A DNA stretch of 64,000 bases from NCBI GenBank assembly GCA_024698705.1, contig JAILQX010000025.1, positions 20,925 through 84,924 on the forward strand, read 5' to 3'. Positions 32,259-46,360 of this stretch are shown in pieces. The notes beneath the pieces were generated by a model. It was not told the origin of the DNA, ran no database searches, and saw only the letters and a program-made list of their open reading frames with translations. The number at the start of each line of letters is the position of its first letter. Positions within the stretch are counted from its first letter, which is position 1. The position numbers and the translations under genes were made by a program. The stretch is from Lachnospiraceae bacterium (GTDB lineage Bacteria > Bacillota > Clostridia > Lachnospirales > Lachnospiraceae).

Positions 32259-34974
<2,716 letters not shown>

Positions 34975-35041
34975 GTAACGTCGCCCTTTATATTATGTAA
35001 ACCAAATATCTGTTTTTCGTATCTTAGTTATGTAAACTGCA

Positions 35042-36754
35042 TCAAATGATACTCTCTGCTGTTTCAAGTATTTCCTTTATGTCATCATCGGTGAGTTTTT
35101 CACTGGTATCGATCCTTGAGCACAGCTGATCGTGCTGAGTGTTGAATACTTCCAGGATATCCTTTATCTTGTCTTTTATATCATCAGGTTCAAGATTGAT
35201 GAAAAGCTTATTGAGGGCTACCACAAGGATGATGACCTGTTCATGGAGTGAATACGGCGAGAACTGCGGCTGACGCAATATCCTCATGAGTCCCTGTCCG
35301 TGCTTAAGTCTTTCCTTCGTCATTGCATCAAGATCACTTGAGAATTGCGTGAACACTTCCATTTCCCTGTATTGGGCAAGTTCGATACGGAGTGCTCCAA
35401 CCGCCTTCTTCATGGCTTTTGTCTGTGCATCACCGCCTACTCTCGATACCGAAAGACCTACATTTACCGCAGGACGCTGTCCCGAGAAGAACAGATCGCT
35501 TTCAAGGAAGATCTGACCGTCCGTGATGGAAATGATATTGGTCGGGATGTATGCGGATACATTTCCGGCCTGTGTCTCAACGATCGGAAGTGCGGTAAGC
35601 GAACCTCCTCCTCTTTCATCACTCAGATGAGCCGATCTCTCGAGAAGCCTTGAATGCAGATAAAATACATCACCGGGATATGCCTCACGTCCCGGAGATC
35701 TGTCGAGCAGCAGACTCAATGACCTGTATGCTATCGCATGCTTTGAAAGATCATCATATATGATCAGGACATCCCTGCCCTTTTCCATAAAATATTCGCC
35801 GAGTGCGGTGCCCGAATAAGGCGCTATATACAGAGCCGGTGCCGCATCACTTGCTGAAGCGTTGACGACCACCGTATAATCCATGGCCCCACGCTGTTTG
35901 AGTGAATTGACAAGCTGGGCTACCGAGCCCGCCTTCTGTCCGATAGCAACGTATATACAGATGACATCCTTGCCCTTCTGGTTAACTATCGTGTCTATTG
36001 CAACGGCTGTCTTACCCGTCTGTCTGTCACCTATTATCAGTTCTCTCTGTCCTCTTCCTATGGGGAACATGGAATCTATGGCAAGAAGGCCTGTCTCAAG
36101 TGGTCTGTTGACCGGTTGTCTGTCAATGATCGGAGGGGCGTCATGTTCTATCTCTCTGTAATCCTGCGCGACAACATCTCCTTTACCGTCAATAGGCACA
36201 AAAAGAGCGTTGACAACTCGTCCGAGGAAACCGTCGCCGACCGGTATGCCGGCCGTCTTATGAGTCCTTCTTACCTTGCTGCCCTCGCATATCTCGTCAT
36301 CATCGTCAAATAAGATACATCCTACCGCATTTTCGGAAAGGTCCAAGACCATGCCTCTGATACCGTTTTCAAATATAAGGATCTCTCCGTAAGTGGCACT
36401 CTCCAGTCCGTCAACCATGGCGATACCGTCACCCAGTGTCAAAACGGTGCCTATCTCTTCCGGATCCGTCGACGGTTCCCATGATTCGATATTTTCCCTG
36501 ATGAGGGTTATGATATCCCTGTTTATACACGCAAGACTGCGCAGTCTTTCCTTAAACTGTTCCAGTCTTCCTTCGTTGTTCCAGTCGTATATCTCATTGC
36601 CGACAACGAGCCTGAAACCGCCGGCATATTTGTGGCTCTCTTTCCACACAAGAGCGATATCTTCACCATATCTGTCTTTTAAAAATGCCTGAAAGCGGAC
36701 CTCCTGATCTGCCCTCGGTGCGCTTTCCGAATAAAGGATCGCATTTCTGCCCAT
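35042..36754 (-). CDS. atpA: F1 ATP synthase subunit alpha with N-terminal delta-subunit-C-terminal-domain-like extension
   Basis: [15 protein letters not shown] alpha core; about 70 extra N-terminal residues including [31 protein letters not shown], resembling the AtpH C-terminus. ATG at 36754. Confidence 0.93.
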
Positions 36755-36783
36755 AATCACAAACTCCGATTTTATTTCGTAAA

Positions 36784-37263
36784 CTATTTGCCTGCAGCTT
36801 TAAGGAATGTATCAAAACTGTCTGATACATCTTCGCCGCCAACGATCTTTGATGTAGCCACAGCGATCATATCCGTGATCTCCTTCTGTGTCTCACTCAG
36901 TATCCTGTCATGCTCTTCGGATGCTTTTTTCTTGGCCGTTGCTATGATCTCGTCGCCCTGTGCTTTGGCTCCGTCGAGCATCTCCTGACGGCTCTTTGAA
37001 GCCTCCTTCATGGCTTTTGCCTTGTTGGCTGCTATCTCTTCATCTGCCGAAACCAACTTCTGCTCATATTCTGCCTTAAGCTGTTCGGATTCCGCCAGCT
37101 TAGCCTTTGCCTTTTCATCAATATCCTTGTAATAATCCGCGCGCTTTTCCATAAAAGCCTTGATCGGCTTATATAACAGGAAATACATGATCGCAAACAG
37201 GATCACCAGATTGAGCATATGCAACAGGATCTGCTGCCAATCTATGTTAAGAGGTATATTCAT
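36784..37263 (-). CDS. atpF: Fo ATP synthase subunit b
   Basis: [41 protein letters not shown]. Confidence 0.95.
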
Positions 37264-37364
37264 TACTTGTCCTTTCTGCCGCCGGGCTGAAAGCGGCCAT
37301 TGGTGGCGCATTCCATGCGGCAACAATCAAGATTGAAACGCAGTTTCAAACTTGTCCTTTCTCT

Positions 37365-37721
37365 TTACAATACAAATATGATAAGTATTGCTATGATCAA
37401 TGCATAAATTATAGCGGTCTCGATAAATACAAGGCCGAGCATCAGTGATGTTCTGATCGGACCTTCTGCCTCAGGCTGTCTTGAAATACCTTCAGCGGAT
37501 TTTGAAATGGCATGGCTCATGGCAATGGCACCGGCTGCCGCAACAACCGCGATAGCGATACCTGCCGCAAATGCTTTACCATTGGTTTCGGACATACCGC
37601 CTGCTTCTTCGATCTGTTCCTCACCTGCCTGGGCTGCACCGGCCTTTACCGGTGAAAGCAAAGCCGCGCTGACCATAACCAACATCAATGCAATAAATAA
37701 TCTCTTTAATACGTTTTTCAT
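37365..37721 (-). CDS. atpE: Fo ATP synthase subunit c with N-terminal signal-like segment
   Basis: GISRQPEAEGPIRTSLMLGLVFIETAIIYALIIAI; extra N-terminal hydrophobic segment. Confidence 0.93.
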   Translation of the reverse strand: MKNVLKRLFIALMLVMVSAALLSPVKAGAAQAGEEQIEEAGGMSETNGKAFAAGIAIAVVAAAGAIAMSHAISKSAEGISRQPEAEGPIRTSLMLGLVFIETAIIYALIIAILIIFVL

Positions 37722-37758
37722 CAATAAGCCCTCCAAAGCTTTTATTTATGTTGAAAAT

Positions 37759-38634
37759 TTATGCCACTACTTCAAATGTTCTGTCATTTGTTTTTGTCTG
37801 TCTGTCTTTTTTCTTCTTTTCCTTCGGTGGTTTCGGCGGTGATTTCTCGGAGACTTCACCGTAGAATATCGAAGTCAGCATCGTTAGAACGTATGCCTGT
37901 ATGAGTGCGTGCAGCAATGTGAACAGGACTGCCACAAATACCGGCAGGACAAAACTCAATGCCGTCGAATAATATACAAGTTCCGTGACCAGCGCCCCGC
38001 TGAGCAATGCACCGAACAGACGGAAGCTCATGGATATCGGCAGTGAAAAATCCTTCAACGTCATGAACACGCCCTTGATGCCGTTGCTCACAATTCCGCC
38101 TGACAATATGACCGTGTATGAGAGCACTCCCAGACTTATCGCTCCGTTTATGTCCGCAAGAGGTGCCGGCAATGAAACGGGATGTCCCGAAACGGATATT
38201 GCCTGCACACCAAGAAGTTCAAACAGAGTACCGATAAAGATATATCCGCCGGCGGTAAATATATATGCTCCGAGGAAACTGTTCCTATGCGGACTGTTAC
38301 CTTTGGCAAGTCCGTCAAACATGCCCACGGCTTCCTCCAGGAGCATCTGGAATTTTCCCGGTATGATCTTAAATTTTGGAATGAAAAATATACGAACGAT
38401 CAGTGCAAAGACAAATATGATCCCCGTTACGACATACGCTGATATTACCGCAGGGTTCACATCCTTGATCCCAAGAAAACTGATCTTCACCGATTCATGG
38501 AGCACCGCATCCTTCATCGTTTCCCGGATGGTCTCCGCTCTTTGCTCGGCTCCTATCGCAAATATGCCTATCAGCAACAAAACTATGATGACACCGAACA
38601 CAACTGCGCTGATGCATTTTCTCTTCTTACTCAT
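37759..38634 (-). CDS. atpB: Fo ATP synthase subunit a
   Basis: SFRLFGALLSGALVTELVYY with conserved Arg; operon position. Confidence 0.92.
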   Translation of the reverse strand: MSKKRKCISAVVFGVIIVLLLIGIFAIGAEQRAETIRETMKDAVLHESVKISFLGIKDVNPAVISAYVVTGIIFVFALIVRIFFIPKFKIIPGKFQMLLEEAVGMFDGLAKGNSPHRNSFLGAYIFTAGGYIFIGTLFELLGVQAISVSGHPVSLPAPLADINGAISLGVLSYTVILSGGIVSNGIKGVFMTLKDFSLPISMSFRLFGALLSGALVTELVYYSTALSFVLPVFVAVLFTLLHALIQAYVLTMLTSIFYGEVSEKSPPKPPKEKKKKDRQTKTNDRTFEVVA

Positions 38635-38741: not shown

Positions 38742-39941
38742 CTACTCTATCCTGAAATCATAATATGCATGGACCAGACTCTTGTATCCAAGCTCCTTGA
38801 GCCTTGAATAGCGAACGTTGTAACGTGCTTTTGAATGGGTACCCGCCAGCAGATATCTTATACACTGCTGGGCGTAAAGATCTATCATGTGTAAACTTTT
38901 TTCGGTATTGATCACCGAGAAGAACCAGTAGCTCCATGTCAGGTCATTGTCACCGGCATTCTCAAGAAGCTTGCTGTTGAATATCCTGATAAATGCGGCA
39001 GCCGCACGTTCTCTGTTAAAACCGCCTCGTTTTCTCCAACGATCCAGAGCCCTCATCTTGCGTCGCATCTTCTGTTTCATCTTTACGACCGATGCCGGGG
39101 CTATGTCTATGATACTGCCTTTGATCTCAAATCCGAGAAATGAAAATCCTTCGGAAGCATTGCCGCAAAATTCCTTGTCAGGATTGACGTCAAGACCCAT
39201 GTCCCCAAGAAACCGTCTTATATATCCCGCGTATTCGTCCCGTTTCTCTTCGGTCTGTGCAAATACGATAATGTCATCGGAGTACCTGGCATATACCGCG
39301 CCCTCATCGGCAAAATATCTGTCAAGTTCCTTAAGATACAGATCCGCATAAAACGAGGCGATCGGCGTTCCTGCCATTATGCCTTTTTCCTCTATGACAG
39401 GTTCTTCTTCGTCCAAAACATATTTTTCTTCGAGCAGTCTTCTCAGAAGATCAAAGAGTTCCGTATCGTCCTTCAATGTATCCTCAATCATCGGTATCAG
39501 CCGATCCACCGGTATCGAATTGAAATAATTCTTCACATCGACCTTGTAGAAATACATCCTGTCCTTTAATGGTCTTAATGTTATCCTTCTTATCGCATCC
39601 TTGGCACTTCTACCGGGTCTGAACGAATACAGATTGTCACTGTAAATGCCATCGTATTTCCGGAGTATCAGGTGTGTCAGAAGTTTTAAGACCATGTTCT
39701 CCGCATAGGGATAGCTGTAAACGACTCTCTTTTTTGCCGACCCCTGCTTGCTTATTATCGCTTTTTTAGGCAGGGCAAACCTTTCCCCGCATTCGATCCC
39801 GTCGCATACCTTAAGATATCCATGCGAATCGATAAAGGCTCTGAGCTCCTTCACGAAATCCTTCGGCACCGCAAGCCCCGTCTTATATCTGTAATATTTC
39901 TCCCAGCTTTCTTCACGGGAAAGCATATCCAAAAGAGACAT
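38742..39941 (-). CDS. Stand-alone reverse transcriptase (RNA-directed DNA polymerase), unclassified
   Basis: SFRPGRSAKDAIRR, YKVDVKNYFNSI (motif A), GIMAGTPIASFYADLYLKELDRYF (motif B), YARYSDDIIVFAQ (motif C, SDD), GLDVNPDKE, FSFLGFEI. Confidence 0.92.
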   Translation of the reverse strand: MSLLDMLSREESWEKYYRYKTGLAVPKDFVKELRAFIDSHGYLKVCDGIECGERFALPKKAIISKQGSAKKRVVYSYPYAENMVLKLLTHLILRKYDGIYSDNLYSFRPGRSAKDAIRRITLRPLKDRMYFYKVDVKNYFNSIPVDRLIPMIEDTLKDDTELFDLLRRLLEEKYVLDEEEPVIEEKGIMAGTPIASFYADLYLKELDRYFADEGAVYARYSDDIIVFAQTEEKRDEYAGYIRRFLGDMGLDVNPDKEFCGNASEGFSFLGFEIKGSIIDIAPASVVKMKQKMRRKMRALDRWRKRGGFNRERAAAAFIRIFNSKLLENAGDNDLTWSYWFFSVINTEKSLHMIDLYAQQCIRYLLAGTHSKARYNVRYSRLKELGYKSLVHAYYDFRIE

Positions 39942-39965
39942 ATTATTTCCCCTTAAACAAAAAAA

Positions 39966-40128
39966 CCATTCAGAGTCAGATCGGCGTAAGGACCTGCCTC
40001 TTGCCCTCGACTCTGAACGGAATAACAGAAAAAGAAATCATTAAATCCATGTAAATACATGGAGGTACCGGACCGTACACGACCGAACTGCCTGCGAAGT
40101 ATAAAAAGGCCGTGCCTGATCCGCCGCA
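39966..40128 (-). other. Structured leader region upstream of the RT, ending in a terminator-like hairpin
   Basis: On the minus strand: CCTGCG..CGCAGG, CCATGTA-TT-TACATGG, and CCGTTCAGAGTC..GACTCTGAATGG (12 bp with one G-U) followed by T7 and RT RBS AAGGGG. Confidence 0.6.
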
Positions 40129-40161
40129 GGCGCAAAGCGTTCTCTTTCTGCTGTTAACTGA

Positions 40162-40677
40162 TCAACTAAGCGCATCATTTGTACGCTTTATCACATAGGC
40201 TTTTGTGTTCCACCAGCCTTCATGATCATGATAAAAACGCAGATACGGTATGTTCTGCTTTCTGCACATATCACGTGTCTTCTGTGCACCGGTACTGTCA
40301 GACATGACCTCTGTGATGAGTGCTGTGCTTCCGTCTTTCTCAAATGTAAATATCACACCGTCTCCGTAACCGTATTTTTCTCTCTTAACCTGATATTGCG
40401 GAAATTCACTTCTGTATATCTGCTCAAAATAATCCCCGTAATGACCGTTAAAATTATACTGATTTTCTTCATCCGGCATCTTCGGTCCCCATGAAAAACC
40501 TGAAGGAGTGTCAGCTTCATCCTCTTCGGCATATCCCGTCTGTGCTGCTGCGACAGGTCTTGCCGTCTGCTGATCTATATTTTGTGCTGCCTCTTTTACC
40601 ACCGACATGGCGGCATTTTTTAACTTATCCAATGACGGATCGTTGGCTAAGTCCTTTAATTTCGAAAATAATCCCAT
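40162..40677 (-). CDS. Hypothetical protein
   Basis: Intact ORF MGLFSKLKDLANDP..; start trimmed; no recognised family. Confidence 0.6.
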   Translation of the reverse strand: MGLFSKLKDLANDPSLDKLKNAAMSVVKEAAQNIDQQTARPVAAAQTGYAEEDEADTPSGFSWGPKMPDEENQYNFNGHYGDYFEQIYRSEFPQYQVKREKYGYGDGVIFTFEKDGSTALITEVMSDSTGAQKTRDMCRKQNIPYLRFYHDHEGWWNTKAYVIKRTNDALS

Positions 40678-40785
40678 ATCCCATACCTCCTGAAACCTGC
40701 AATACATCATTTATTTTATAGGAAAAGCCATAGCGTGACAAGGGTAACAATACTTGTTTACGGTACGGCTATATGCTTTTTCCCA

Positions 40786-42498
40786 TCAGGCCTGTTCAAT
40801 ATCCGTATAATACTTTTCGATCCGCGGTCTGGCGGCCACATAATACTTTTCAAGGCTCTTGTCAAAATGCTTTCCCATGCTCTCCATCATGATCGAATCC
40901 GCCTCTTCAAATGACATCGCGTCCTTATATACACGCTTGCTAACAAGAGCGTCATAAACATCCGCAATGGCCATTATGCGAGCTTCGATAGGTATCTCAT
41001 CTCCTTTAAGTCCCTGCGGATAACCTGATCCGTCCATCCTTTCATGATGATAATGGGCGATATTTTCTGCAAGTACCTTGAAGTAAGCATCATTTGTTCC
41101 CTCAAGTATCTTACGCAACACCTTTGCCCCCTCGGGCGCGTGTTGTTTCATTTTCTCGAATTCCTCATCGGTAAACCGTCCGGGCTTTCTCAACACCGCA
41201 TCGTCAACCGCTATCTTCCCTATATCGTGCAGGGGTGCAGCCTTGATGATCGCCTTGACAAAATCCTTCGTGATCCCCCGGTTTTCCGTGAATTCCTTAT
41301 CCTTCACGATCTCGTCCATAAGTATCTCGACAACATCACTCGTGCGGACGATATGGCCTCCTGTTGAATTGTCCCTGCTTTCAACCATGACCGCCATACT
41401 CTTTATTAGGTTATTGTTGATCCTTACTATATCACGTGTCTTATCCTCAACCTCACGTTCAAGATCGGCATTGTAGTTATCCAGCATCTTTATATATTTC
41501 TGGTTCTGGGTATCATCGGTTATGACCATCTGATATCCCTTTTTCACACCCTCGTCGTACAGATGATTGATGTCCACAAGGTAGATCCTGTCATCCTTGT
41601 TGTAGAAGAATTTATCATCACGTCCGTCTTTGTCAAATGCCTCAAGCCTTGACATGAATGCCTCATTCAATGAAGGACTGCCGGTGATCGGAGTATCTAT
41701 CCTTATATCCTCGAGTTCGTTGAATATGTTCTTTGCGACCTGATTACTGCCCAGATAATTCTTTGCAAAATCCAATGATATGAATCCGGTATCACCTGTC
41801 TCTATAATGGAGTCGATCGATGTATCGGCCACATCATACATGCATGATCTGTGTGCGATGAGCAGATACATGAACTGGGCAAATACATATGCTGCCGGCA
41901 CCAGTTCGAAATTATTTATTCCAAAGGCTTTCTGCCCGAAAAATGCAATGATCGTGATCAGTTCCGGCACAAAAAAGAGGATTACGGTTCTCTTCGAAAC
42001 CTCATTTTTATTGACAAAACTGTATATGATCGCCCCCATGCCGAGTGCGAGGTATATGATCACAAGTCCGTAAAATACACTGTGCATTATCCCATAGGTC
42101 TTCACAACGATGAGTCCGTTATCCCCCGCGGTAGCCGTTATATCTTTATAAAAGATCGGAAGCCGCCCGATCGAGAAAACAGAAAGATAGACCATGAAAC
42201 TGATAAGCAACGCGATCAGCCTTATGGTTCTGGTTACCCTGATACAACAGATATCATATATGTTAAGAGTGATGAAAAGTATAAGAAAACATCCGCCGAT
42301 ATATATGATCTTTACGGCCAGGATATACTCTTGCAGAATCGACGCCCGGCTCATAAAAACATAACCGACGTTTACGATCGGAACAAATGCATATATCAGT
42401 GAAAAATTGACATTGAAATGGCGATGCCAGAGACAGACATACACAACCGTCAACAATATTGAAAAATAAAATAATATAAGATAATACGTTGCTATCAT
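40786..42498 (-). CDS. Membrane HD-GYP domain phosphodiesterase with multi-TM N-terminus
   Basis: HDIGKIAVDDAVLRKPGRF..HHERMDGSGYPQGLKGDEIP. Confidence 0.92.
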   Translation of the reverse strand: MIATYYLILFYFSILLTVVYVCLWHRHFNVNFSLIYAFVPIVNVGYVFMSRASILQEYILAVKIIYIGGCFLILFITLNIYDICCIRVTRTIRLIALLISFMVYLSVFSIGRLPIFYKDITATAGDNGLIVVKTYGIMHSVFYGLVIIYLALGMGAIIYSFVNKNEVSKRTVILFFVPELITIIAFFGQKAFGINNFELVPAAYVFAQFMYLLIAHRSCMYDVADTSIDSIIETGDTGFISLDFAKNYLGSNQVAKNIFNELEDIRIDTPITGSPSLNEAFMSRLEAFDKDGRDDKFFYNKDDRIYLVDINHLYDEGVKKGYQMVITDDTQNQKYIKMLDNYNADLEREVEDKTRDIVRINNNLIKSMAVMVESRDNSTGGHIVRTSDVVEILMDEIVKDKEFTENRGITKDFVKAIIKAAPLHDIGKIAVDDAVLRKPGRFTDEEFEKMKQHAPEGAKVLRKILEGTNDAYFKVLAENIAHYHHERMDGSGYPQGLKGDEIPIEARIMAIADVYDALVSKRVYKDAMSFEEADSIMMESMGKHFDKSLEKYYVAARPRIEKYYTDIEQA

Positions 42499-42505
42499 AA
42501 AACCT

Positions 42506-44227
42506 CTATCTCAATGCATGCATGTCTTTTTTCATCGCATACATCCTTTCATCCGCGATCCTCAGTCCCTCTCTTATTCCAAGACCGTCATCGGGTTTTG
42601 ACTCATATATTCCGTAAGCCGTGCTGAGCAGAAGATCCTCATATCCGGTATCCGCTTCGGCGAGTCTGTTGTTAAGCTTATCAAGTACACTGATGAGCCA
42701 TGTCCTGTCGTCATCCTTATCCACCTGCAGAACAAATATGAACTCATCTCCGCCTGTCCTCGCAAGGAAGCCCCTGCCCTCAAATGATGCCTTTAGTACA
42801 TCCGCAAAATGCAAAATATATTTATCACCGGCTTCGTGTCCGTAGCTGTCATTGGCCTTTTTCAGATGATTGAGATCGAACTGGACTATTATGTATCGCT
42901 TTTTGCCTTCGTCGATCATATCGAAATAATTCTCCGAAGCCTGCCTGTTGTTCAGTCCGGTAAGCGTATCCGTAAATGCCAGTTTTTCTATGATCTCCGC
43001 TCTTTCCTCAACCCTTGCCGACCTCATCGCATTGACTATGTAATCATAGAACATGGACAAAACAAAGAATATCATCGCGAAATACAGCAGGTTTGACGAA
43101 AAACCGTAATTGCTCTCCGTAGCGTGATATCGGATCATGCTCAAAAGAGCTACGATCCCCATTGAAATCGTTGCATATACGGACAGGATATATCTGTTTT
43201 TGCCCTTGACGATATCATAGATCCTTATACTCAGGACCGATACGATAGCTATTCCCGAAAGAACATGCATGATCGTCAATGAAGAACGCATGCCGACCTT
43301 ACAAAATATATATAAGCCGGTCGTCACGGCAAAAAATGCAATATCTATAAGCCACAGTATGCCAAAATAAATATTTCTTCGTGTCCTAAGTCTCCCGTTC
43401 TCTTCCTCAAACTGGTAAGCCATGAAAAAACACGGGAGCAGATAGAATGCGAAATATTTTATGAAAGCCTTTAAGACCAGGTCGTCAGAAAACAGTTCCG
43501 TGATATCGAGCTCACATATCATCCATACACCGAATGCTATCGAAAACAATGCAAGCCCGGCAAACCTGAACATATCCACCGGTCTGAACAGTTTTCTGAG
43601 ACTGCAGACGATCACCATTACGGTCATAGAACATCCGAGGATTATAAAGAAGAATCCCAGCGACATCGGAAATACCTTGCTTGAAGGATAATCCTTAAAA
43701 AATGCCCTGCCTTCCCATATTTCCGGCGGTGCGAGTTTGCTGAAAGCATCGTCCTCACCTATACGCATTGTGATACTCAACATGGCACCGGCCACCTTAT
43801 CATCCAGCTTCACGGTTCTGAAACCCACACCGAGCACATCTCCTCTTTCATATGCATCCGTTTCTGCTCTCAGCAGTTCCTTTCCATCCAGCTCAACCAC
43901 GATATCATAATAATGCTCATAGACTACCATGATCGTATTGTCCGGAAGCTTATCGGGAAGTTTTCTTGATATGACAAGGGTATCGCTCTTCTTTACATCG
44001 TCAAATACTTTCTCAAACAGATCGACATCCGTATATCTTTCATCGTTATATGTGACATCCCATCCTGCATTCAATATCTCCGGTCTTGATTCGGTCTTTG
44101 CATATCCCTCTAACAAACAGATCGCAGATACAAGTCCGCCCATTGCGCAGAATATCGCGATTATCACCAGGAACAAACTTGCAGGTGTCAGTTTTTTTTC
44201 TTTGCTCACATTAGTTTTCATAGTCAC
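42506..44227 (-). CDS. Membrane diguanylate cyclase with 7TMR-DISM-like N-terminus
   Basis: Extracytoplasmic domain, multiple TM, FLARTGGDEFIFVLQ. Confidence 0.9.
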   Translation of the reverse strand: MTMKTNVSKEKKLTPASLFLVIIAIFCAMGGLVSAICLLEGYAKTESRPEILNAGWDVTYNDERYTDVDLFEKVFDDVKKSDTLVISRKLPDKLPDNTIMVVYEHYYDIVVELDGKELLRAETDAYERGDVLGVGFRTVKLDDKVAGAMLSITMRIGEDDAFSKLAPPEIWEGRAFFKDYPSSKVFPMSLGFFFIILGCSMTVMVIVCSLRKLFRPVDMFRFAGLALFSIAFGVWMICELDITELFSDDLVLKAFIKYFAFYLLPCFFMAYQFEEENGRLRTRRNIYFGILWLIDIAFFAVTTGLYIFCKVGMRSSLTIMHVLSGIAIVSVLSIRIYDIVKGKNRYILSVYATISMGIVALLSMIRYHATESNYGFSSNLLYFAMIFFVLSMFYDYIVNAMRSARVEERAEIIEKLAFTDTLTGLNNRQASENYFDMIDEGKKRYIIVQFDLNHLKKANDSYGHEAGDKYILHFADVLKASFEGRGFLARTGGDEFIFVLQVDKDDDRTWLISVLDKLNNRLAEADTGYEDLLLSTAYGIYESKPDDGLGIREGLRIADERMYAMKKDMHALR

Positions 44228-44348: not shown

Positions 44349-44561
44349 ACAGCAGGGATCGGGGCCGGAATAATAGGTCCGGATTCTGCTTATGCACGTC
44401 AAATGCCCACAACTTCTTTTTCTTACGGGTCGGCAGTAATCCGCCATCCATGGCGGTACTGCCTCAAAATGCCTTCCGGGCATTTTGACCCTTTCCTGTT
44501 AAGCATTTGACGGCAACGCAACGAATCCGTCGTATATTATTCCGGCCCCGATCCCTGCTGT
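44349..44561. repeat. 213-bp nested palindromic element with perfect 27-bp terminal inverted repeats (MITE-like or structured RNA)
   Basis: acagcagggatcggggccggaataata (44349-44375) vs tattattccggccccgatccctgctgt (44535-44561), plus inner nested stems. Confidence 0.9.
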
Positions 44562-45382: not shown

Positions 45383-45399
45383 CCTCCTCACTACATATT

Positions 45400-45448
45400 G
45401 GGAACCACCCGCGCATGCAGATTTGCCTTCGGCAAAGCGCGGGGGCTA
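45400..45448. repeat. REP-like hairpin repeat, copy 1
   Basis: gggaaccacccgcgcatgcagatttgccttcggcaaagcgcgggggcta; identical to copy 2. Confidence 0.9.
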
Positions 45449-45489
45449 CATAGTGCAATGTTTTCTCTGAAAACCTTGCACTACATTTC

Positions 45490-45538
45490 GGGAACCACCC
45501 GCGCATGCAGATTTGCCTTCGGCAAAGCGCGGGGGCTA
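45490..45538. repeat. REP-like hairpin repeat, copy 2
   Basis: Same 49 nt as copy 1; hairpin CCCGCGC..TTGCC-TTC-GGCAA..GCGCGGG. Confidence 0.9.
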
Positions 45539-46360
45539 TGCTTCATAATAACCCATAAAGATCTCTTCTATCGAAGGATCAGTTATGTCCAGCTGCGTTA
45601 TGTTTTTTCCCGAAAGGTCGGCTATAAGTGAGTTCATGTCACCCTTATAGAGATAATCCGATTTTTTACCGTCTGCCGTCACGATTACCCTCTTCGAGTT
45701 TGTATGAGTAAGCTCATCCACGCTTCCGCAGCTTATGAGTTTTCCCTCCTTCATGATCGCAACATTTTTGCAGTAGTTTTTCACTTCCGAAAGAACATGT
45801 GTTGACAGCAGACAGGTCGTACCCTGCTTTACATACTCTTCTATGAGTTCAAAAAATGTATTCTGCATCAGCGGGTCGAGACCGCTTGTCGGTTCATCAA
45901 ATACGAACAATGCCGGCTTGTGCTGCATTGCGCATACTATACTCACTTTTTTCCTGTTTCCGAGTGAAAGCTCATTTATACTTCTGCTCGTATCTACCTT
46001 CAGTCTCTCGCAAAGTTTTCCCGCTTCGTCAGCACAATCTGTACCTCTTACGTCTGCTGCAAGCTTTATCACTTCGCTCACTTTCATTGACGGATAGAAC
46101 ATGGCCTCGGAAGGCATGTATCCTATGTTCTTCATCAGTTTCTCATGGCCTGACCTCGCATCGGATCCCAATATCTTTATCTCTCCTTCATACCCCAGAA
46201 ACCCAAGCATCGATCTGATCGTCGTTGATTTGCCGGCCCCGTTCGGTCCTAAGAATCCGAATATATCTCCCTCTTTTACCGTAAATGATACGCCCTCGAC
46301 TCCCCTGTGCTTCCCGTATCGTTTTGTAAGGTTGTTTATCTCTATAACATTTCCTGCCAT
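45536..46360 (-). CDS. ABC transporter ATP-binding protein
   Basis: GFLGPNGAGKSTTIRSM, LSLGNRKKVSIV, LFVFDEPTSGLDP; start trimmed to MAGNVIEINN. Confidence 0.94.
   Translation of the reverse strand: MAGNVIEINNLTKRYGKHRGVEGVSFTVKEGDIFGFLGPNGAGKSTTIRSMLGFLGYEGEIKILGSDARSGHEKLMKNIGYMPSEAMFYPSMKVSEVIKLAADVRGTDCADEAGKLCERLKVDTSRSINELSLGNRKKVSIVCAMQHKPALFVFDEPTSGLDPLMQNTFFELIEEYVKQGTTCLLSTHVLSEVKNYCKNVAIMKEGKLISCGSVDELTHTNSKRVIVTADGKKSDYLYKGDMNSLIADLSGKNITQLDITDPSIEEIFMGYYEA

What the first reader, a model, noticed from the sequence alone, without database searches (positions are those of the whole stretch)
38742..40161. Stand-alone reverse transcriptase with a structured, terminator-like leader: candidate RT plus ncRNA system
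Seen: a 399-aa RT with catalytic Asp (YKVDVKNYFNSI) and YSDD (YARYSDDIIVF). Motif B is GIMAGTPIASFYADLYLKELDRYF, without the PQG of group II introns and retrons or the SQ typical of diversity-generating RTs. No maturase or endonuclease motif was recognised. The roughly 220-nt gap upstream folds on the coding strand into at least three hairpins: GCCTGCG..CGCAGGC, CCATGTA-TT-TACATGG, and a 12-bp stem CCGTTCAGAGTC..GACTCTGAATGG followed by T7, just before the RBS and ATG of the RT. The stem needs a G-U pair that forms only in minus-strand RNA. GCCTG can pair with either a near CAGGC or the distal CGCAGGC. Established: retrons and several defence-associated RTs (DRTs) use an adjacent structured ncRNA as template. 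Inference: the leader could be the RT's template/primer RNA, or an attenuator controlling the RT.
Basis: partly seen in the sequence, partly recalled or inferred. Interest (0 to 1): 0.75.

Follow-up and report, generated by a model that had tools for sequence, protein, structure and literature searches.

The report
UG26 defence-type reverse transcriptase with RT-5 RNA
A gut or rumen Clostridia bacterium carries a three-part cassette (a small nuclease-like protein, a pseudoknotted non-coding RNA and a reverse transcriptase) that most likely copies part of that RNA into short repetitive DNA as an anti-phage defence, as better-studied relatives of this catalogued but untested enzyme class do.

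Summary
The RT (38742-39941, minus strand) is a UG26-class RT (555 bits; next class 123). The leader contains RT-5, an existing Rfam family (86 bits). It is longer than the Rfam model: a 133-nt RNA with a terminal stem, a pseudoknot and a last hairpin. 43 of 46 base pairs show two-sided compensatory change, including all 6 pseudoknot pairs. The RT is not stand-alone: a catalogued partner (RTasCOG2852, 40162-40677) lies just upstream. RNA and RT occur together in nearly every locus. In the sister clade of the window's RT they lie 1.2-7.7 kb apart, the RNA with its own promoter, which argues for a trans-acting RNA and against an attenuator. Best explanation: a Class-2 DRT-like ribonucleoprotein copying a short internal template. 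The likeliest template is the 9-nt junction after the last hairpin (UUUAANNNN), placed as in the DRT10 RNA; the template is inferred. No telomerase-like repeat was found in the variable bulge. Neither defence nor cDNA was tested. Parts are catalogued; mechanism apparently unpublished in the library searched.

The parts
38742..39941 (-). UG26-class reverse transcriptase, 399 aa
   Evidence: PADLOC RT_UG26 555 bits over 1-397; next specific class UG17/DRT10 123 bits. All 22 relatives aligned hit RT_UG26. AlphaFold model pLDDT 91; Foldseek best matches are group II intron RT, DRT9 and DRT2.
40020..40152 (-). Full-length RT-5-type non-coding RNA, about 133 nt
   Evidence: Own covariance model R1, 141.6 bits, E = 8e-37. 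Rfam RF03026 covers 40033-40135, 86.4 bits. Covariation.
40140..40151 (-). Terminal stem P0, 5' strand (GCAGAAAGAGAA)
   Evidence: Pairs with 40025-40036; 12 of 12 pairs with two-sided changes, 98.3% paired. Not in the Rfam model.
40025..40036 (-). Terminal stem P0, 3' strand (UUCUUUUUCUGU); in most relatives followed by a U run, i.e. a built-in terminator
40131..40139 (-). Small hairpin P5 (CGC-UUU-GCG)
   Evidence: 3 of 3 pairs with two-sided changes, 99.3% paired.
40125..40130 (-). Pseudoknot 5' strand CCUGCG
   Evidence: Pairs with 40091-40096; 6 of 6 pairs with two-sided changes, 99.4% paired, although the alignment was not fitted to it.
40091..40096 (-). Pseudoknot 3' strand CGCAGG, in the apical loop of P3
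40069..40123 (-). P1 (40118-40123 with 40069-40074), P2 (40108-40115 with 40077-40084), P3 (40098-40101 with 40086-40089)
   Evidence: 11 of 14 pairs in P1/P2 and 4 of 4 in P3 with two-sided changes.
40102..40107 (-). Variable bulge between P2 and P3 (UUUUUA), usually 6-11 nt in relatives; rejected as a repeat-addition template
   Evidence: Direct repeats no more frequent than in shuffles (p = 0.09 to 0.86).
40046..40063 (-). Last hairpin P4 (UCCAUGU-AUUU-ACAUGGA), candidate template boundary
   Evidence: 7 of 7 pairs with two-sided changes.
40037..40045 (-). Junction J(P4/P0) UUUAAUGAU, candidate template (inferred)
   Evidence: Begins UUUAA in 98 of 119 relatives and is 9 nt long in 104 of 119. 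A-B-A' pattern in 114 of 119, 75 +/- 5 in shuffles.
39959..40020 (-). Intrinsic terminator between RNA and RT (stem 40009-40020 with 39966-39977, then T7)
   Evidence: MFE -28.6 kcal/mol, z = -5.35. No such extra terminator in many relatives.
40162..40677 (-). Partner protein RTasCOG2852 (171 aa from the likely start; the 182-aa ORF runs to 40710)
   Evidence: PADLOC PDLC03793 E = 5e-59 over residues 12-181. Homologue in 68 of 104 UG26 loci.
40713..40741 (-). Promoter-like site TTGTCA-17-TAAAAT upstream of the partner
   Evidence: 10 of 12 consensus matches; such sites are no commoner in the region than in shuffles, so weak.

Best explanation
A UG26 defence-associated RT (DRT) system of the Class-2 type. 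A discrete ~133-nt RNA, folded by its terminal stem and pseudoknot, binds the RT in trans. The RT copies a short single-stranded stretch of it, probably the 9-nt junction UUUAA-NNNN immediately 3' of the last hairpin (P4 as template boundary), and re-anneals the growing cDNA on the UU that follows, giving tandem-repeat cDNA; for this window roughly 5'-(A)TCATTAAA-3' repeated every 8-9 nt. In this clade the cDNA or the RNP would control the partner, a COG2852-type protein with a PD-(D/E)XK-like fold and an N-terminal helical stretch, to stop phage growth. Shown here: the RT class, the RNA and its structure, the partner and their linkage, and RNA-RT unlinking in relatives. Inferred: RNA binding, templating, template position, repeat addition and defence.
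For: RT class: UG26 at 555 bits; the best specific classes after it include UG17 (DRT10), DRT9, DRT3a and DRT2, of which DRT3a is named Class 2 in PMC13174585 and DRT2, DRT9 and DRT10 in PMC12632851. RNA: Rfam RT-5; 43 of 46 pairs with compensatory change, and slid controls collapse from 95.7% to 36-48% paired. Coupling: all 24 Rfam hits in 200 genomes of the family lie beside a UG26 RT; 33 of 34 loci from model searches have the RT within 1.5 kb and the 34th genome has it 7.3 kb away. Trans-acting RNA: in L073, L077, L094, L101 and genome G631 RNA and RT are 5.4-7.7 kb apart, and 1.2 kb apart across an opposite-strand gene in G741; partner-less RNAs have a -10 box just upstream (24 of 40, 4.4 expected; with partner 9 of 79). 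The partner recurs about 0.75 kb upstream and no other gene recurs comparably. Template position: in DRT10 (PMC12632851) a 137-nt RNA carries its template directly 3' of a hairpin at about nt 107-115; here J lies at about nt 107-115 of 133, and three DRT10 homologues fetched here show a direct repeat right after a hairpin near the 3' side (L168, L169, L170, read by eye). The innermost two P0 pairs, which would hold A', are the least variable of P0 (93 and 94 of 96 A-U). A-B-A' is present in J of 114 of 119 RNAs, 75 +/- 5 in shuffles.
Against: No experiment; no published work on UG26 mechanism found in the library. The A-B-A' pattern in J rests largely on one conserved sequence (UUUAA....UU), so related RNAs are not independent; covariation between A and A' fades on removing similar RNAs (p from <0.001 to about 0.05-0.16), and the associated column is no more coupled than unrelated ones. 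The J hypothesis was formed after looking at the data, after the bulge hypothesis failed. The RNA model does not recognise DRT10 RNAs. No match in viral contigs and no near-full-length match in phage or plasmid records, and no recurrent defence neighbours, so the defence role is by class only. The partner's fold match is weak (best E = 0.018) and its active site looks incomplete.
Confidence: 0.68

Rival explanations
1. The RNA and terminator form a cis-acting leader (attenuator) that sets RT expression; the RNA is not a substrate of the RT.
For: In the window the RNA and a strong terminator lie between partner and RT, so RT transcription must read through both.
Against: In a sister clade RNA and RT lie 1.2-7.7 kb apart, in G741 with an opposite-strand gene between, yet the RNA keeps its structure. 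The RNA is capped by its own terminator and has its own promoter when no partner precedes it. The pseudoknot is conserved without an alternative fold being conserved. The extra terminator is not conserved.
Confidence: 0.1
2. Class-2 DRT in which the RNA is bound as scaffold or template, but with a different template (variable bulge, other loop) or a single non-repetitive cDNA.
For: The bulge is the most variable single-stranded stretch and lies beside the pseudoknot; the J evidence is partly confounded by relatedness.
Against: No A-B-A' enrichment in the bulge. The Class-2 systems investigated so far make tandem-repeat cDNA (PMC13174585).
Confidence: 0.3
3. A retron: terminal inverted repeats are a1/a2 and the RNA is partly converted to msDNA primed from a branching guanosine.
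For: Upstream structured RNA with complementary ends; effector-like partner.
Against: RT scores 49 bits against the retron St85 model, cut-off 235, and lacks VTG and NAxxH motifs by inspection; the best class is UG26 by over 430 bits.
Confidence: 0.03
4. A degenerate or domesticated group II intron RT.
For: Best fold match is a group II intron RT (TM 0.79); TIGR04416 116 bits.
Against: Below the TIGR04416 cut-off of 300; no intron RNA in Rfam at gathering threshold anywhere in the window; single copy in its genome; UG26 score far higher. RTs share this fold in general.
Confidence: 0.02

Closest known systems
Rfam RT-5 RNA (RF03026)
   Same: The window RNA matches the whole model, 86.4 bits.
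   Different: The real RNA extends beyond the model: terminal stem P0, the 5' half of hairpin P5, and the pseudoknot, which the Rfam structure line does not show.
UG26 RTs with RTasCOG2852 (PADLOC PDLC03764, PDLC03793)
   Same: Both proteins match at full length.
   Different: Nothing in kind; the RNA and promoter evidence and the partner-free, split loci are added here.
DRT10 (UG17, SLATT, 137-nt ncRNA; PMC12632851)
   Same: Compact RT with a separate RNA of similar length and plan (closing stem, small hairpins, short junction after the last hairpin), plus a partner gene.
   Different: RT class clearly different (123 against 555 bits); partner COG2852-like instead of SLATT; RNAs not alignable; junction only 9 nt; pseudoknot found here.
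DRT9 (protein-primed poly-dA; PMC12483538)
   Same: RT plus ncRNA; Foldseek match TM 0.67.
   Different: No poly-U template conserved here; RT HMM 88 bits.
DRT2 and DRT3a
   Same: Class-2 RTs with ncRNA templates; the DRT2 RNA is pseudoknotted (PMC12039810).
   Different: RT scores 64-81 bits; no ACACAC template in the RNA.

Membership tests
UG26 RT class | Full-length match to the UG26 profile, best by a wide margin | tested here: met
   555 bits, residues 1-397 of 399; 22 of 22 relatives.
UG26 RT class | Intact catalytic residues | tested here: met
   D135, D222 and D223 invariant in 22 aligned RTs.
RT-5 RNA (RF03026) | Score above the gathering threshold | tested here: met
   86.4 against 45.7 bits.
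Class-2 DRT (works like) | Sequence closest to other Class-2 RTs | tested here: met
   UG17, DRT9, DRT3a and DRT2 are the nearest characterised classes by HMM score; no tree with all classes was built.
Class-2 DRT (works like) | Conserved ncRNA encoded in cis | tested here: met
Class-2 DRT (works like) | RT binds the RNA and makes RNA-templated repetitive cDNA | not testable with these tools
   Needs RIP-seq and cDNA sequencing.
Class-2 DRT (works like) | Anti-phage activity | not testable with these tools
   Needs phage challenge.
DRT10 | UG17-class RT | tested here: not met
   123 bits against 555 for UG26.
DRT10 | SLATT partner | tested here: not met
   The only partner recurrent across loci is COG2852-type.
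DRT10 | A-B-A' template 3' of a stable hairpin | tested here: inconclusive
   Pattern present in J in 114 of 119, but covariation of A and A' is not significant once similar RNAs are removed.
Retron | Retron-class RT with VTG and NAxxH | tested here: not met
   49 bits, cut-off 235; motifs absent on inspection.
Group II intron RT | Maturase-class RT inside an intron RNA | tested here: not met
   116 bits, cut-off 300; no intron RNA in the window.
Diversity-generating retroelement | Template and variable repeats with a DGR RT | not tested
   RT class far from DGR by HMM; template/variable repeats were not searched for.
PD-(D/E)XK nuclease (partner) | alpha-beta3-alpha-beta core with catalytic D and ExK | tested here: inconclusive
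   Predicted secondary-structure order fits; weak match to the EcoT38I endonuclease (E = 0.018); E134 invariant, but Lys usually replaced (ExM/ExL) and no conserved upstream Asp.

The most novel reading that the evidence does not exclude
UG26 is a second bacterial, telomerase-like repeat-adding RT lineage: a trans-acting, pseudoknotted 133-nt RNA templates 8-9-nt tandem repeats (core TTAAA) from a junction bounded by a hairpin, and the repeats control a COG2852 PD-(D/E)XK-like effector rather than a membrane protein.
Probability: 0.3. Interest if true: 0.72.

Novelty: new member of a known kind. Interest (0 to 1): 0.5.

Why it matters
It joins three separate catalogue entries (UG26, RT-5, RTasCOG2852) into one cassette, gives the RNA its full extent and a pseudoknot backed by covariation, and shows that the RNA can sit kilobases from the RT with its own promoter. 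That turns an RNA of unknown function into a specific, cheap test: is J copied into 8-9-nt repeats? If so, repeat addition is wider among Class-2 DRTs than the four characterised systems.

Tried and rejected
1) Variable P2/P3 bulge as an A-B-A' template: direct repeats at chance level. 2) A/A' coevolution in J: strong at first (p < 0.001), but other columns are as strongly associated and it weakens to p 0.05-0.16 in non-redundant sets; kept only as a lead. 3) Homology of the RNA to DRT10 RNAs by covariance model and by Rfam: nothing convincing upstream of SLATT; the best hit (20.6 bits) is a short stretch elsewhere whose reverse strand also hits. 4) Phage or plasmid carriage: none in IMG/VR, no near-full-length match in phages or plasmids. 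5) Conserved extra genes around UG26: none beyond the partner; HD-GYP or GGDEF neighbours belong mainly to one syntenic clade. 6) Empty-site test through the adjacent ATP synthase: that operon itself is not shared by congeners, so uninformative. 7) Literature on UG26 or RT-5 mechanism: none found; the source papers for RT-5 and the UG classes, as I recall their identifiers, are not held. 8) Pfam identity for the partner: no convincing hit.

Full report
Observation. Rfam identifies the leader directly: RT-5, RF03026, 40033-40135 on the minus strand, 86.4 bits against a gathering score of 45.7. PADLOC identifies the RT as UG26 (555 bits) and the gene upstream of the RNA as RTasCOG2852 (E = 5e-59). 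So the locus is a cassette partner - RNA - terminator - RT, all on the minus strand.

RNA anatomy. I aligned leaders from 104 UG26 loci, built a covariance model of the full RNA and aligned 99 plus 20 matches. The RNA is ~133 nt (window 40020-40152): terminal stem P0, small hairpin P5, a strand that pairs with the apical loop of P3 as a pseudoknot, stems P1-P3, hairpin P4, a 9-nt junction, and the closing strand of P0, followed in most relatives by a U run. On 96 distinct sequences 95.7% of cells pair, 43 of 46 pairs have two-sided changes, and shuffles and slid registers fall far below. The pseudoknot was not part of the model used for alignment and still has 99.4% paired cells and two-sided changes at all six pairs. 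The 12-bp stem with T7 is an ordinary strong terminator between RNA and RT; it is not conserved.

Linkage. Every RT-5 hit in 200 genomes of the family (24 loci in 22 genomes) adjoins a UG26 RT. In further genomes of the order, class and genus, 33 of 34 loci have the RT within 1.5 kb. The exception, genome G631, has RNA and RT on the same strand 7.3 kb apart. The RT tree places the window's RT as sister to a nine-member clade in which seven have no adjacent RNA; in four of those (L073, L077, L094, L101) the RNA lies 5.4-7.7 kb upstream on the same strand. In G741 an opposite-strand glycosyl hydrolase gene lies between them. Five of the six genomes tested from the corresponding genus lack the partner altogether. 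RNAs without a partner upstream often carry a -10 box at the right place (24 of 40, 4.4 expected); those behind a partner rarely do (9 of 79, 3.4 expected). The RNA is therefore most simply an independent gene acting in trans, and RT plus RNA is the core; the partner is a clade-specific addition (66 of 83 rows of one well-supported clade, 1 of 18 outside).

Distribution. Patchy: 6 of 20 genomes of the genus with the own one counted, 22 of 200 of the family, 17 of 392 of the order, 13 of 391 of the class. RTs of congeners (57-62% identical) are no closer to the window RT than RTs from other families of Clostridia (up to 63%), which fits horizontal transfer or long divergence. No carriage by sampled viruses, and no near-full-length match in phages or plasmids. 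Only the partner and the RNA recur around the RT. This looks like an accessory cassette; the defence role itself rests on RT class.

Mechanism. Characterised Class-2 systems copy a short part of a cis-encoded RNA into repetitive cDNA (PMC13174585, PMC12632851, PMC12483538, PMC12039810). In DRT10 the RNA is 137 nt, its template lies directly 3' of SL5 at about nt 107-115, and repeat addition needs a short direct repeat A-B-A'. I fetched DRT10 homologues; in three of them I see by eye a direct repeat directly after a late hairpin near the closing stem (TCAA-CGGTAC-TCAA in L169; TAAC-TTATTG-TAAC in L170; TAA-TAATG-TAA in L168). In the UG26 RNA the same place is J(P4/P0), nt 107-115 counted from the first paired base, beginning UUUAA in 98 of 119 and 9 nt long in 104 of 119. 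It is followed by UU held by the two least variable pairs of P0. In the window the stretch reads GAUUU-AAU-GAUUU. An A-B-A' of at least 2 nt occurs in 114 of 119 (shuffles 75 +/- 5) and of at least 3 nt in 55 (27 +/- 4). This is suggestive and post hoc: it largely reflects one conserved motif, and A/A' covariation does not survive redundancy removal. The obvious alternative, the variable bulge, has no such pattern. I therefore put about 0.35 on J as the template, within 0.68 for the overall RNP explanation.

Partner. N-terminal MGLxSKLxG helix, variable linker, C-terminal domain with invariant E134, R158 and GWWN. AlphaFold gives the strand-helix order of a PD-(D/E)XK core; the best fold match is the EcoT38I endonuclease, weak at E = 0.018. 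The Lys of ExK is usually missing, so nuclease activity is open; a DNA-sensing or degenerate-nuclease effector is my guess.

Verdict. A real, strongly conserved RT-RNA-partner cassette of a catalogued but, in the library searched, uncharacterised DRT class.

Noticed in passing
window 44373-44536 (-): Rfam TwoAYGGAY RNA (RF01731, 58.8 bits) just upstream of the GGDEF gene 42506-44227; the stretch also encodes an imperfect repeat (RMRGAFALRMRGAFALRISE) in one frame.
   Followed up: no
window 40786-44227 (-): An HD-GYP gene and a GGDEF gene lie directly upstream of the cassette. In a related clade (L051, L071, L079, L101) an HD-GYP-type gene ends almost exactly where the UG26 RT begins, suggesting coupled translation.
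   Followed up: partly
window 32681-38634 (-): ATP synthase operon whose A subunit is only 26-37% identical to the copies in congeners; the genome has a second copy (G000:C17), so this one looks like an accessory, possibly ion-specific, ATPase.
   Followed up: no
window 45398-45631: Direct repeat visible in translation (GTTRACRFAFGKARGL twice) between the ABC transporter genes.
   Followed up: no
L020 junction after P4: Divergent RNA with a perfect 4-nt A-B-A' (UGUU-CAAAGC-UGUU), a good candidate for testing the template idea.
   Followed up: no
L012: RNA and RT are separated by an extra stretch with three copies of an AAAGCTTTACTATGCTGTAGT-like repeat.
   Followed up: no
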